Assembly: GCA_016214955.1 (NCBI GenBank)
Contig: JACRMN010000012.1
Location: forward strand, 1 to 64,000
DNA length: 64,000 nucleotides
Direction of reading: 5' to 3'
DNA from: Deltaproteobacteria bacterium
GTDB lineage: Bacteria; Myxococcota; Myxococcia; Myxococcales; Anaeromyxobacteraceae
Shown: positions 32,146 to 35,110 of the stretch, one piece after another
Layout: the number at the start of each line of letters is the position of its first letter
Position numbering within the stretch: the first letter of the stretch is position 1
Notes under the pieces: generated by a model
What the model was told of the DNA's origin: nothing
The model's database searches: none
What the model saw: only the letters and a program-made list of their open reading frames with translations
Translations under genes and position numbers: made by a program

Positions 32146-32346
32146 TCAGCCGCGCTTGACCTTGCCGGCCGCGGTCTGGGCCTGCTGGTAGTACTCGCCC
32201 GTCTTCTCGCGCCGGACCACCTTGCCGAGGGCCTTCTCCAGCCCGGTGGTCTCGGCCAGGCAGGCCTGCCCCTTGAGGCCGTGGGTCTCGAAGGACACGT
32301 TGCCGTCGGGGCCGATGACCACCTCGATCTCCAGCTTCTCGGCCAT
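32146..32346 (-). CDS. DUF2997-family small protein
   Basis: 66 residues. IEVVIGPDGNVSFETHGLKG, then QACLAETTGLEKALGKVVRR and EYYQQAQTA match the DUF2997 pattern: a beta-hairpin, a Cys-containing turn and a helix. The family has no known function, and is often found beside DUF1257 and an AAA ATPase in cyanobacteria and other bacteria (family recollection). Last gene of a four-gene operon; it starts two bases after the DUF1257 stop. Confidence 0.85.
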   Translation of the reverse strand: MAEKLEIEVVIGPDGNVSFETHGLKGQACLAETTGLEKALGKVVRREKTGEYYQQAQTAAGKVKRG

Positions 32347-32348
32347 GG

Positions 32349-32726
32349 CTACCTCCAGCGCTGGAAGACCAGCTTCACCGAGCCGTCGCGCTGCTTCTCC
32401 TCGCGCGCCACCTGGTACCCCTTCTGCTTCAGCTCCTGCAGCACCCGCGAGTAGGCGTAGCGCTGGACCACCCGCCCGGCCAGCGCCTGCCCCGGCCCCG
32501 CCTGGCAGTCCCGGGGGACGAGCACCACCTGCTTCGAGCGGGGGTCCACCTTCACGCCCACCTCGGCACCGCCCTGGCGCAGCACCGCGTCCACCTCGTG
32601 GCTCTGGCCGTCGGTGGTGCGCAGCCGCTGCCGCTCCTCCACCACCTCGGCGCCGGCCTCGACGGCCGCCCGGAGCAGCTCGGCCAGGCTCTCGACCACC
32701 ACCGCCACGTCTGCGCCCTGGGACAT
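32349..32726 (-). CDS. DUF1257-family protein (Ycf35-like)
   Basis: 125 residues. Alpha-beta protein with GQSHEVDAVLRQGGAEVGVKVD, KQVVLVPRDCQAGPG, and a C-terminal RYAYSRVLQELKQKGYQVAR. The pattern, and position between DUF2997 and an AAA ATPase, fits DUF1257, the family of algal plastid Ycf35. Function unknown. It starts three bases after the zinc-ribbon gene's stop. I rely on pattern and context rather than a search. Confidence 0.82.
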   Translation of the reverse strand: MSQGADVAVVVESLAELLRAAVEAGAEVVEERQRLRTTDGQSHEVDAVLRQGGAEVGVKVDPRSKQVVLVPRDCQAGPGQALAGRVVQRYAYSRVLQELKQKGYQVAREEKQRDGSVKLVFQRWR

Positions 32727-32729
32727 GGG

Positions 32730-33509
32730 TCACCACCAGAGCCGGCGCCGGTAGCGCCGGCGCGGGGAGAAGAGCCCGATGAGCACGAAGAGCACGACCA
32801 TGAAGAGCGGAGGGAAGCGGCGGGCGAACACCAGCCCCAGCACCACCGCCAGCACCAGCCCGCCGATGGCCACCAGCCGCCAGGCCGGGCTCCTGATGGC
32901 CCGCAGGATGCGGACGCCCACCGGAGTGGGGTCGCGGGGGCCGTAGGGGTCGCCGGGGTCGTAGGGCCCCCGGCCCCAGCCGTTGCCGCCGCCCCAGGGG
33001 TCGCCCTGCTCCAGCCGCCAGCGCTCCCGCTCGCCCACCTGGCGCGCCATCTCGGCGGCGGCCTGGCGCCGCGCCTCGGCAACCTCCAGCTCGGCGCGGG
33101 CCGCGGCCTCGCGGCGGCCGGCGTTCTCGCGCTCCAGGTCGTCGCGCTCCTTCACCCGGGCGGCCCAGAGCTTCTCGTTGTAGGCGCGCTGGGCCTCGGT
33201 GTGCAGCTCCTCGCCGCAGGTGGAGCAGGTGCGGGCGTAGCGCGAGCTGTCGGTCTCGCAGCGCATGCAGCGCAGGAAGGGCTGCTCCTCCGCGTCGCGC
33301 TGCTCCAGCTCGGGGGGCCGGGGCGGCGGCGGGGCGAAGCGGTCGCCGGCGCCGGTGGTGGCGGGGGCGCCAGGGGCGGGCGGCGGCGGGGCCGTCCCCA
33401 GCCCCTCGAAGCGCTCGCCGGTGCCGGGCCGTTCGGCGCAGTCGTCGGCTCCCTCCTGGCGGGGCCGCTCGAGCCGCTCGAAGCGGCGGAAGCGATCGCG
33501 CAGGCTCAT
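32730..33509 (-). CDS. Zinc-ribbon protein with two C-terminal membrane helices
   Basis: 259 residues. Opens [16 protein letters not shown], then a Pro-rich linker, a zinc ribbon Cys81-x2-Cys84-x10-Cys95-x2-Cys98, a charged coiled-coil helix (about 110-165), a Gly/Pro-rich stretch, and two hydrophobic helices (about 205-225 and 230-247) ending in RRRYRRRLWW. Its ATG overlaps the AAA ATPase stop (ATGA), so it is translationally coupled. A smaller paralog is at 18473-19018. No family known; likely the membrane anchor of the AAA complex (inference). Confidence 0.8.
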   Translation of the reverse strand: MSLRDRFRRFERLERPRQEGADDCAERPGTGERFEGLGTAPPPPAPGAPATTGAGDRFAPPPPRPPELEQRDAEEQPFLRCMRCETDSSRYARTCSTCGEELHTEAQRAYNEKLWAARVKERDDLERENAGRREAAARAELEVAEARRQAAAEMARQVGERERWRLEQGDPWGGGNGWGRGPYDPGDPYGPRDPTPVGVRILRAIRSPAWRLVAIGGLVLAVVLGLVFARRFPPLFMVVLFVLIGLFSPRRRYRRRLWW

Positions 33510-35098
33510 GCGGACGGGCCGAAGCGGGCGGCGATGGCCTTCGGCACCTCCTCGGAGGGCAGCGTGGAGGCCGGCCGGGTGCGGGTGCGGGACCACTCGC
33601 GCAGCCGCGCGATGTCCTCGCGCATGGTGGCCGCCAGCGGCACCGACTCGCGCAGCGCCTGCTCCAGGTGCGCCTGGCCGAGCTCCTTCTCCTCGCCGAA
33701 GGCCAGGTAGAGGGCGGCCACCACCGCCTGCTCGATCTCCGCCCCGCTGAACCCCTCGGAGGCCCGCGCCAGCCGCGCCAGGTCGTAGGCCTCGGGCTTG
33801 CGGCCGCGGCGGGCCACGTGGATGCCGAAGATCTCCTGGCGCTCGGCGGCCGCCGGCAGGTCGATGAAGAAGATCTCGTCGAAGCGCCCCTTGCGCAGCA
33901 GCTCCGGCGGCAGGAGGTCGATGCGGTTGGCGGTGGCCACCACGAACACCGGCGCCGTCTTCTCCTGCAGCCAGGTGAGCAGGGTGCCGAAGACGCGGGC
34001 GGTGACGCCGCCGTCCGACTGGCCCGAGGAGGCCACGCCCGAGAGCGCCTTCTCGATCTCGTCGATCCACAGCACCGCCGGGGCCACGCCCTCGGCCACG
34101 CGGATGGCGCGGCGCAGGTTCTCCTCCGAGGAGCCGACCAGCCCGGAGAAGATGCGCCCCATGTCGAGCCGCAGCAGCGGCAGCCGCCAGGTGGCGGCGA
34201 TGGCCTTGGCGGTCAGGCTCTTGCCGCAGCCCTGCACGCCGAGGAGCAGGAGCCCCTTGGGCTCGGGGATGCCGAACTTGCGGGCCGCCTCCCCGAAGGC
34301 GGCCGAGCGCCGGGTGAGCCAGGCCTTGAGGTTCTCGAGGCCGCCGACGTTCTGGAGCTTCTCGTCGGTGGGGTAGTACTCGAGCAGGCCGCTCTTGCGG
34401 ATCACCTGGCGCTTCTCGTCGAGCACCAGCTGGATGTCGTCGCCGTCGAGCCGCCCGTTGTGGGCGATGGCCTTGGCGAAGGCGTTCTCGGCCTCGGCCA
34501 GGGTGAGCCCCAGCGCCGCCTTGATCATCTGCTCCGCCTCGTCGCGGGAGAGGTTCACCTGGGCGCGGTTGTTCTTGCGCACCACGGTGACGATCTCGCG
34601 GAGCAGGTCGAGGAGCTCGCGCGAGGTGGGCAGCGGGACGTCGAGGACCGAGATCTCCTTCTCCAGCTCCGGCGGGATGGTGAGCGTGGGCGAGAGCAGG
34701 ATGACGGTGGTGTAGGTGGACTTGAGGGCGTGGGCCAGCTCGCGCAGCGAGCGCACCACCGCCGGGTCGGAGAGGAAGGGGTGGAAGTCCTTCAGCACCA
34801 CCAGCGAGGGATCGGTGAGCTTGCCGATGGCCTGCAGTGCCTCGACCGGATCGCGCGGCCCCTCGCTCCCCGGGCCGCGGGCGCTCTCCACCCGCCGCAG
34901 CCCCTGGGTGACCGACCAGTGGAGCAGCTCCTTGCCGTGGCCCTTCGCCAGGTCGGCGAGCACCGCGTCGAGCCGCTGCTCCTCCCAGGAGACGAGGTAG
35001 AGGAGCGGGTAGCGGGCCCGCACCATCACGTCCAGCTCCTGTACGAAGGCGGGCGCCGGGGAGCGGGGAGCGGCGGGGGGCGGTGCGGCCTCGGCCAT
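33506..35098 (-). CDS. AAA+ ATPase, Ycf46-like
   Basis: 530 residues. The N-terminal half (about 20-245) contains an inactive AAA-like region typical of Ycf46 ([40 protein letters not shown]). The second half is an active AAA module: Walker [16 protein letters not shown], Walker [12 protein letters not shown], and [20 protein letters not shown] as sensor 1 and arginine finger. Plastid Ycf46 is of unknown function; a role in energising a complex with DUF1257 and DUF2997 is inference. TATACT sits 6 bases before the ATG with no Shine-Dalgarno. Confidence 0.88.
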
Positions 35099-35104
35099 CC
35101 CGCG

Positions 35105-35110
35105 AGTATA
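35105..35110 (-). promoter_or_regulatory. -10-like TATACT just before the AAA ATPase ATG
   Basis: TATACT (5 of 6 consensus) is 6 bases before the ATG at 35098. Transcription would start at or next to the A of ATG, implying a leaderless mRNA for the whole operon. No clean -35 is visible. Confidence 0.5.

What the first reader, a model, noticed from the sequence alone, without database searches (positions are those of the whole stretch)
32146..35110. Four-gene AAA(Ycf46-like)/zinc-ribbon/DUF1257/DUF2997 operon of unknown function
Overlapping or 2-3 base spacing joins a Ycf46-like AAA ATPase, a membrane zinc-ribbon protein, a DUF1257 (Ycf35-like) protein and a DUF2997 protein. Ycf46, Ycf35 and DUF2997 are known as conserved orphans of plastid and cyanobacterial genomes. 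Their tight clustering here in a non-phototroph with a zinc-ribbon membrane protein suggests an ATPase-driven complex unrelated to photosynthesis. No function is established.
Basis: partly seen in the sequence, partly recalled or inferred. Interest (0 to 1): 0.75.

Follow-up and report, generated by a model that had tools for sequence, protein, structure and literature searches.

The report
Tagged p97-like ATPase operon, Ycf46/Ycf35 type
Four tightly packed bacterial genes encode a small relative of the cell's p97/Cdc48 protein-unfolding motor, two cofactors known mainly as plastid and cyanobacterial 'orphan' families, and a membrane partner carrying a short peptide tag, and the same set recurs in bacteria, archaea and large phages, which makes the function of these orphans testable.

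Summary
In detail: AAA (33506-35098), zinc-ribbon membrane protein (32730-33509), DUF1257 (32349-32726) and DUF2997 (32146-32346) lie on the minus strand with a 4-base overlap and 2-3-base gaps. It is not a local oddity. In 195 Myxococcota genomes all 18 with DUF1257 are among the 20 with DUF2997; in 199 Planctomycetota all 18 are among 31; the pairs are neighbours. The same Ycf46-type AAA accompanies them in many phyla, archaea and large phages. AlphaFold plus Foldseek shows this AAA to be a minimal p97/Cdc48-type tandem ATPase (degenerate D1, active D2) without the p97 N-domain. Two patterns not found in the literature searched: the AAA C-terminus in such loci ends in R-x-[LIV]-[ED]-hydrophobic, and neighbouring proteins of unrelated families carry RFxxLE or the same C-terminal peptide at their very ends. 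The window's partner has RFERLE. I propose a Cdc48-like remodelling machine whose cofactors DUF1257/DUF2997 and peptide tags bring client or anchor proteins to the ATPase. Peptide docking was not seen in monomer models, and the tail/cofactor link is not proven on the tree. The substrate in this organism is unknown.

The parts
33506..35098 (-). Ycf46-type AAA+ ATPase, 530 aa: degenerate D1 AAA domain (about residues 20-245), active D2 AAA domain (about 246-490), C-terminal tail ending AARFGPSA
   Evidence: PF00004 E=3.4e-29 and AAA lid 3; phrog_8638 E=2.4e-155; invariant G287/G290/G292/K293, D346-E347, N391, R402, R405; AlphaFold model of a 54%-identical homologue (L064) matches p97/Cdc48 D1-D2 over the full length
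33518..33526 (-). RFG in the AAA C-terminal tail (conserved as TRFG/SRFG at the C-terminus in the window's relatives)
   Evidence: C-terminal comparison
32730..33509 (-). Partner protein: N-terminal RFxxLE tag, single zinc ribbon, coiled middle, two C-terminal membrane segments, RRR..W end
   Evidence: translation, sub-threshold double-zinc-ribbon hit E=0.0087, alignment of homologues
33468..33485 (-). RFERLE tag in the partner protein (residues 9-14), at the place where homologues read RFLKLE, RFRNLE, RFEKLE
   Evidence: alignment of 14 partner proteins; enrichment test
33213..33272 (-). Zinc ribbon CMRC...CSTC
   Evidence: PF12773 sub-threshold, residues 80-99; Cys conserved in homologues
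32349..32726 (-). DUF1257 (Ycf35-like) cofactor, 125 aa
   Evidence: PF06868 E=3e-13; phrog_20456 E=1.1e-5; homologue fold predicted with pLDDT above 90 over much of the domain
32146..32346 (-). DUF2997 cofactor, 66 aa
   Evidence: PF11211 E=2.5e-18; phrog_23133 E=3.6e-10
32260..32262 (-). Cys29 of DUF2997, in the GxxGxxC-type motif, present in every copy examined
   Evidence: family listing including phage copies

Best explanation
The operon encodes a compact p97/Cdc48-like protein-remodelling machine. The Ycf46-type AAA is a tandem ATPase (degenerate D1, hydrolysing D2) without the p97 N-domain that would carry adaptors; from the family it is expected to work as a hexameric ring. DUF1257 (Ycf35) and DUF2997 are its small cofactor pair. 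They take the place of p97 adaptors and dock, at least partly, through a short peptide code: a hydrophobic-acidic-hydrophobic C-terminal tail on the AAA (R-x-[LIV]-[ED]-hydrophobic; RFG in the window's family) and the same kind of peptide (RFxxLE near the N-terminus, or RxLEL/RFxxLE at the C-terminus) on partner proteins. In this operon the tagged partner is the zinc-ribbon membrane protein, which would be either the membrane anchor or the protein that the ATPase extracts or assembles. Shown here: the domains, the linkage, the p97-type fold by prediction, the tag enrichment. Inferred: hexamer, docking of the peptides, direction of action. Unknown: the substrate in this organism.
For: Domains and junctions. 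Perfect nesting and adjacency of DUF1257 and DUF2997 in two phyla. AAA next to DUF1257 and/or DUF2997 in 43 of 80 sampled AAA loci from many phyla, and both next to it in 34 of 80 viral AAA loci. AlphaFold model of a 54%-identical homologue: full-length match to p97/Cdc48 D1-D2, E down to 1.5e-24, TM up to 0.68 with substrate-processing Cdc48. Terminal RF..[LIVM][ED] in same-strand neighbours: 20 against 1.2+-1.1 in shuffles (maximum 6 of 500) at cofactor loci, 6 against 0.9 at other AAA loci, 3 and 1 in distant genes; 24/436 near against 4/420 far, p=1.5e-4, in 10 against 3 protein families. AAA tail motif at 40/54 cofactor loci against 3/36 others, p=3e-10; those three exceptions carry the radical SAM gene typical of cofactor loci. 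Neighbours with the lineage's own AAA tail: Bacillota AAA ...GRSVDF, GRALDV and neighbours ...GRVVDY, GRIVDF; Verrucomicrobiota AAA RRMEF/RRMEL and rhomboid-like protein RRLEL. p97 itself binds cofactors through its C-terminal Leu-Tyr-Gly tail (PMC10641518).
Against: Neither AlphaFold run docked a tail or tag: these stretches stayed disordered, pLDDT below 50; monomers only, so weak evidence. On the tree only 8 independent contrasts exist; the tail follows the cofactors in about 1.5-3.4 of them and essentially never opposes, p at best 0.125. In viruses the tail does not follow the cofactors. RFxxLE also occurs beside AAA genes without cofactors, so the reader of the tag may be the AAA itself. 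No genome-wide surplus of C-terminal tags was seen. Class-C and some phage AAAs lack the tail. The motif was noticed in these same loci before it was tested there, so its enrichment is partly post hoc; the viral set, a rough replicate, gave a weak surplus (11 against 4.7).
Confidence: 0.6

Rival explanations
1. A metal, iron-sulphur or redox device: DUF2997 with its invariant cysteine is modified or loaded by a metal or radical SAM partner, DUF1257 presents it, and the AAA drives the exchange. The zinc ribbon here replaces the ferredoxin Fed7 of cyanobacteria and the radical SAM activase of other lineages.
For: The cysteine is present in every DUF2997 listed. A Fer4_12-type radical SAM gene lies near the AAA in 12 of 43 cellular cofactor loci and 12 of 40 viral ones, never in the 40 other viral loci. 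Cyanobacterial DUF2997-ycf35-fed7 cluster and Fed7 stress phenotypes (PMC4284462).
Against: Most cofactor loci, the window included, have no radical SAM gene near the AAA; a zinc ribbon is structural as a rule; DUF1257 has no conserved cysteine set in the copies compared.
Confidence: 0.2
2. A conflict or phage-derived module: the set spread by phages and serves in defence, counter-defence or contractile injection systems; the window copy is a domesticated relic.
For: 34 of 80 viral AAA loci carry both cofactors; phage RHph_I4 has AAA-x-DUF1257-DUF2997 in the window's order; class-C island beside CD-NTase/SAVED genes with MkoA-like helicases; eCIS clusters in L094 and L113; weak IetA profile hits.
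Against: The window copy sits among housekeeping-like genes (phosphohistidine phosphatase family, transketolase), is shared with family members at 70-77% identity in the AAA, and has no nuclease, toxin or effector in the operon. Phage AAAs are about 32-35% identical to it.
Confidence: 0.1
3. The four genes merely share a transcript and work apart; the peptide tags are chance or compositional.
For: Motif is short; docking was not predicted; tree test underpowered.
Against: Nesting of DUF1257 in DUF2997 genomes in two phyla, the same order in phages, and tag placement at protein ends well above shuffled controls.
Confidence: 0.05

Closest known systems
p97/VCP/Cdc48 (and Drg1/AFG2)
   Same: Tandem D1-D2 AAA fold over the whole chain, active D2, C-terminal tail with a short hydrophobic/acidic motif, separate small cofactors
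   Different: No N-domain; D1 lacks Walker A and the catalytic Glu; far below the curated Cdc48 cut-off (122.6 against 802.65 bits); cofactors DUF1257/DUF2997 are unrelated by sequence to UBX, PUB or PUL proteins as far as tested
Cyanobacterial slr0373-slr0374(Ycf46)-slr0376 stress operon and DUF2997-ycf35-fed7 cluster
   Same: Same three families; in sampled cyanobacteria (Leptolyngbya, Pseudanabaena, Okeania and others) the AAA gene is directly followed by a DUF1257 gene
   Different: There the third partner is a ribbon-helix-helix-like protein with a CxxC pair or the [4Fe-4S] ferredoxin Fed7; DUF2997 was not found near the AAA; here all lie in one operon with a membrane zinc-ribbon protein
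Bacteriophage modules (phrog_8638, phrog_20456, phrog_23133)
   Same: AAA, DUF1257, DUF2997 in the same order, with one or two intervening genes
   Different: No zinc-ribbon protein; in RHph_I4 and SM1 placed beside replication genes; AAA only about 32-35% identical
IetAS anti-phage system (IetA)
   Same: AAA domain similarity (E=2.9e-24)
   Different: IetA aligns only with the D2 half; no IetS protease gene in the operon

Membership tests
DUF1257 / Ycf35 (PF06868) | profile score above the curated cut-off | tested here: met
   50.3 bits against 22.2
DUF2997 (PF11211) | profile score above the curated cut-off | tested here: met
   66.1 bits against 24.1
Active AAA+ ATPase | Walker A, Walker B, sensor 1 and arginine-finger residues in D2 | tested here: met
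   [26 protein letters not shown]; invariant columns
p97/Cdc48-type tandem AAA | two AAA domains in tandem (D1-D2 fold) | tested here: met
   predicted structure of homologue L064, TM up to 0.68 over the whole chain; profile comparison of the two halves found no sequence homology
p97/Cdc48 family proper (TIGR01243) | curated subfamily cut-off | tested here: not met
   122.6 against 802.65 bits
p97/Cdc48 family proper | N-terminal adaptor domain | tested here: not met
   the D1-like fold begins near residue 20; no further N-domain
p97/Cdc48 family proper | hexameric ring and ATP-driven unfolding | not testable with these tools
   needs biochemistry
Cyanobacterial cluster DUF2997-ycf35-fed7 | [4Fe-4S] ferredoxin Fed7 gene adjacent | tested here: not met
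   the only other gene product besides the AAA is a zinc-ribbon membrane protein
IetAS defence system | IetA with adjacent IetS protease | tested here: not met
   no protease gene in the operon or directly beside it; IetA hit limited to the AAA region
Radical SAM-bearing variant of this module | Fer4_12-type radical SAM gene beside the AAA | tested here: not met
   none found in window positions 25001-45000 by phmmer; 8 Fer4_12-type matches elsewhere in the genome

The most novel reading that the evidence does not exclude
A previously unrecognised, widely shared Cdc48-like system in bacteria, archaea and large phages in which a short terminal peptide (RFxxLE / RxLE-hydrophobic), carried both by the ATPase tail and by client or anchor proteins of unrelated folds, is read by the DUF1257-DUF2997 pair or by the ATPase itself, so that swapping the tagged partner re-purposes one machine for membrane, injection-system, nucleic-acid and phage tasks; the plastid orphans Ycf46 and Ycf35 would be its organellar remnant.
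Probability: 0.4. Interest if true: 0.88.

Novelty: new variant of a known kind. Interest (0 to 1): 0.72.

Why it matters
Ycf46 and Ycf35 have long been unexplained plastid genes. Placing them with DUF2997 in one widespread p97-like machine, with a concrete peptide code to mutate, turns them into a testable system. If the code is real it would be a bacterial counterpart of the adaptor logic of p97, and it would predict partners from sequence ends alone. Only three papers in the library searched mention DUF1257 and two mention DUF2997; none that was read describes the linkage with the AAA outside cyanobacteria.

Tried and rejected
Defence system: only weak IetA hits, no partner. Plasmid or phage origin of the window copy: no DUF1257 match in plasmids, one weak match in phage records, no zinc-ribbon partner in phages. 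Homology of the two AAA halves by sequence profile: not detected; replaced by the structural result. Genome-wide C-terminal tag pattern: no surplus over the reversed control. Structural relatives of DUF1257/DUF2997 in the PDB: no match with E below 0.001; no sequence match for DUF1257. Peptide docking in naturally in-frame read-through chains (L071; L064): no docking. A fused chain from L092 was prepared and dropped because its first DUF1257 copy had almost no alignment depth. Literature on eCIS plus AAA plus radical SAM: nothing relevant. The zinc-ribbon protein matched no NCBIfam or PHROG family.
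Full report
What is there. The minus strand of 32146-35098 carries four closely packed genes. In reading order they are a 530-aa AAA protein, a 259-aa zinc-ribbon membrane protein, a 125-aa DUF1257 protein and a 66-aa DUF2997 protein. The AAA and zinc-ribbon genes share ATGA; the next gaps are 3 and 2 bases. Pfam places DUF1257 and DUF2997 far above their cut-offs. The zinc-ribbon assignment is sub-threshold in Pfam (E=0.0087) but the CxxC...CxxC pattern is plain in the sequence and is kept in the homologues aligned. Upstream lies a histidine-phosphatase-family gene, downstream a transketolase gene. 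The flanking genes differ in relatives, while the four genes stay together.

Not a local oddity. In 195 Myxococcota genomes DUF2997 occurs in 20 and DUF1257 in 18, all 18 inside the 20; in 199 Planctomycetota, 31 and 18, again all inside. The pairs lie next to each other, mostly under 160 bases and at most about 0.7 kb apart. Hypergeometric p-values are 1.6e-23 and 1.2e-17, without correction for relatedness. A scan of GTDB genomes with the AAA alignment returned relatives from Myxococcota, Omnitrophota, Verrucomicrobiota, Planctomycetota, Armatimonadota, Chloroflexota, Spirochaetota, Cyanobacteria, Bacillota and archaea. In 43 of these 80 loci DUF1257 and/or DUF2997 is beside the AAA. Of 37 genomes whose sampled AAA locus lacks them, 27 have no DUF2997 match anywhere in the assembly, so a form of the AAA without cofactors seems to exist. 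In viral contigs 34 of 80 AAA loci carry both cofactors, and Rhizobium phage RHph_I4 has AAA-x-DUF1257-DUF2997 in the window's order.

Interchangeable partners. The core trio is joined by lineage-specific genes. Window family, Omnitrophota and one unnamed bacterium: zinc ribbon plus membrane segments. Planctomycetota and Verrucomicrobiota: a rhomboid-like membrane protein, a radical SAM protein, a zinc-ribbon membrane protein, a TPR protein and a PilT-like ATPase. Bacillota: radical SAM and a membrane/HhH protein. Spirochaetota and some Myxococcota: contractile injection (eCIS) clusters. Other Myxococcota: an FHA/transglycosylase protein, or an island with an MkoA-like helicase, a radical SAM gene and, in one genome, a CD-NTase and SAVED protein next door. 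Cyanobacteria: the AAA gene is followed directly by a DUF1257 gene of Ycf35 type and preceded by a small protein with a ribbon-helix-helix-like start and a CxxC pair; separately, DUF2997-ycf35-fed7 is a published cluster (PMC4284462).

What the ATPase is. D2 of the window protein has an intact GxxGxGKS, DE, sensor Asn and arginine fingers. The first domain shows no profile similarity to D2. AlphaFold modelled a 54%-identical homologue (L064) with pLDDT mostly 80-97 over the AAA. Foldseek aligned the whole chain with p97/Cdc48 D1-D2, E down to 1.5e-24 and TM up to 0.68 for substrate-processing Cdc48. At the Walker A position D1 reads 'Y.[VL][ST].EE.R' instead of a P-loop, and after the conserved Asp the catalytic Glu is missing. 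So the protein is best described as a minimal Cdc48-type tandem AAA with degenerate D1 and no N-domain. It is not a member of the curated Cdc48 subfamily.

The peptide code. While comparing partners I noticed RFxxLE in the zinc-ribbon protein (RFERLE, residues 9-14), and then in unrelated neighbours, nearly always at the very N- or C-terminus: TPR proteins (MTRFGKLEF...), eCIS-linked proteins (...DRFSNLEL*), an NHL propeller (MTDRFNYLEL...), a zinc-ribbon SNF2 helicase (MSQERFEWLE...), a pentapeptide-repeat protein (...KRFKKLEMD*). Counting only terminal motifs, same-strand neighbours of AAA genes with cofactors have 20 against 1.2+-1.1 in shuffles (maximum 6 of 500); AAA loci without cofactors 6 against 0.9; distant genes 3 and 1, as expected by chance. 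Near against far: 24/436 and 4/420, p=1.5e-4; by protein family 10 against 3. The AAA itself ends in R-x-[LIV]-[ED]-hydrophobic in 40 of 54 loci with cofactors and 3 of 36 without; the window's family ends in RFG instead. The three exceptions all carry the radical SAM gene that marks cofactor loci. Neighbours can carry their own lineage's AAA tail: Bacillota AAA GRSVDF/GRALDV with neighbours GRVVDY/GRIVDF; Verrucomicrobiota AAA RRMEF with a rhomboid-like protein ending RRLEL.

Limits of the peptide code. The motif was found by eye in these loci and then counted in them. In the viral set the surplus is weak (11 against 4.7), though one phage locus has three proteins ending SRFSLIE, SRFSFLE and SRFAFLESK. 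On an AAA tree only 8 independent contrasts for cofactor presence are available and the tail follows in about 1.5 to 3.4 of them, never significantly. A DNA-level search found no genome-wide surplus of C-terminal tags. In both AlphaFold runs the tail and tag stayed disordered. These used natural in-frame read-through of neighbouring genes as one chain and were monomers. Because RFxxLE also accompanies AAA genes without cofactors, the reader of the tag could be the AAA rather than DUF1257/DUF2997.

Mechanism proposed. By comparison with p97, whose last residues Leu-Tyr-Gly recruit PUB and PUL cofactors and which binds the Derlin-1 rhomboid pseudoprotease by a short peptide (PMC10641518), I propose that the AAA ring uses its C-terminal tails and the cofactor pair DUF1257/DUF2997 as a docking platform, and that tagged partners are brought to it as clients or anchors. 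In the window the partner is a membrane protein exposing a zinc ribbon and the tag, so the machine would act at the cytoplasmic membrane. Shown: gene content, linkage, fold by prediction, tag statistics. Inferred: oligomer, binding, direction. Known phenotypes agree with a stress-linked remodelling role but do not prove it: Ycf46 belongs to a stress-responsive operon and its loss lowers EcaB activity (PMC7496141); Fed7, from the DUF2997-ycf35 cluster, is needed under oxidative, metal, salt and iron stress and binds a DnaJ-like protein (PMC4284462).

Novelty. In the library searched three papers mention DUF1257 and two DUF2997; the cyanobacterial cluster is described, the link with the AAA across phyla and phages and the peptide code were not found. 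Subscription literature and preprint servers are mostly outside that library.

Noticed in passing
L056 2907-4004, 5096-17627 (Myxococcota genome G064): DUF2997 island with Ycf46-type AAA, MkoA-like SF1 helicase and coiled-coil protein directly beside a SAVED-M48 peptidase protein and a CD-NTase, and near a caspase-fold protein: looks like a large conflict island built on the same core.
   Followed up: partly
L054, L055 (Myxococcota genomes G061, G019): Class-C order AAA, helicase of about 1120 aa, 574-aa and 655-aa unknowns, DUF2997, DUF1257, radical SAM; the middle proteins match no Pfam family.
   Followed up: partly
L094 4006-21480 (Spirochaetales): An eCIS cluster contains radical SAM, Ycf46-type AAA, DUF2997 and a tagged 138-aa protein in addition to what looks like the usual eCIS AAA at its far end.
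   Followed up: partly
L066, L069, L079, L082, L092 (protein group c11): Rhomboid-like membrane proteins upstream of the AAA lack an obvious Ser-His dyad and end in tag-like peptides (RRLEL, SRLEL, FADLD, FVDID); resembles the p97-Derlin pairing.
   Followed up: partly
L231 801-4854 (IMG/VR contig): Three different phage proteins shortly before the AAA-DUF1257-DUF2997 genes end in SRFSLIE, SRFSFLE and SRFAFLESK.
   Followed up: no
L080 14127-16148 (Anaerolineae): SNF2 helicase with an N-terminal RFxxLE tag followed by a zinc ribbon, downstream of a Ycf46-type AAA without cofactors.
   Followed up: no
L043 and L051 (same genome, G018): One myxobacterium holds both variants of the module: the window type, with two zinc-ribbon genes, and the FHA/transglycosylase type.
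   Followed up: no
L121, L132 (Bacillota): DUF1257-like proteins of about 420 aa with apparent internal repeats of the domain; no Pfam hit for the L132 copy.
   Followed up: no
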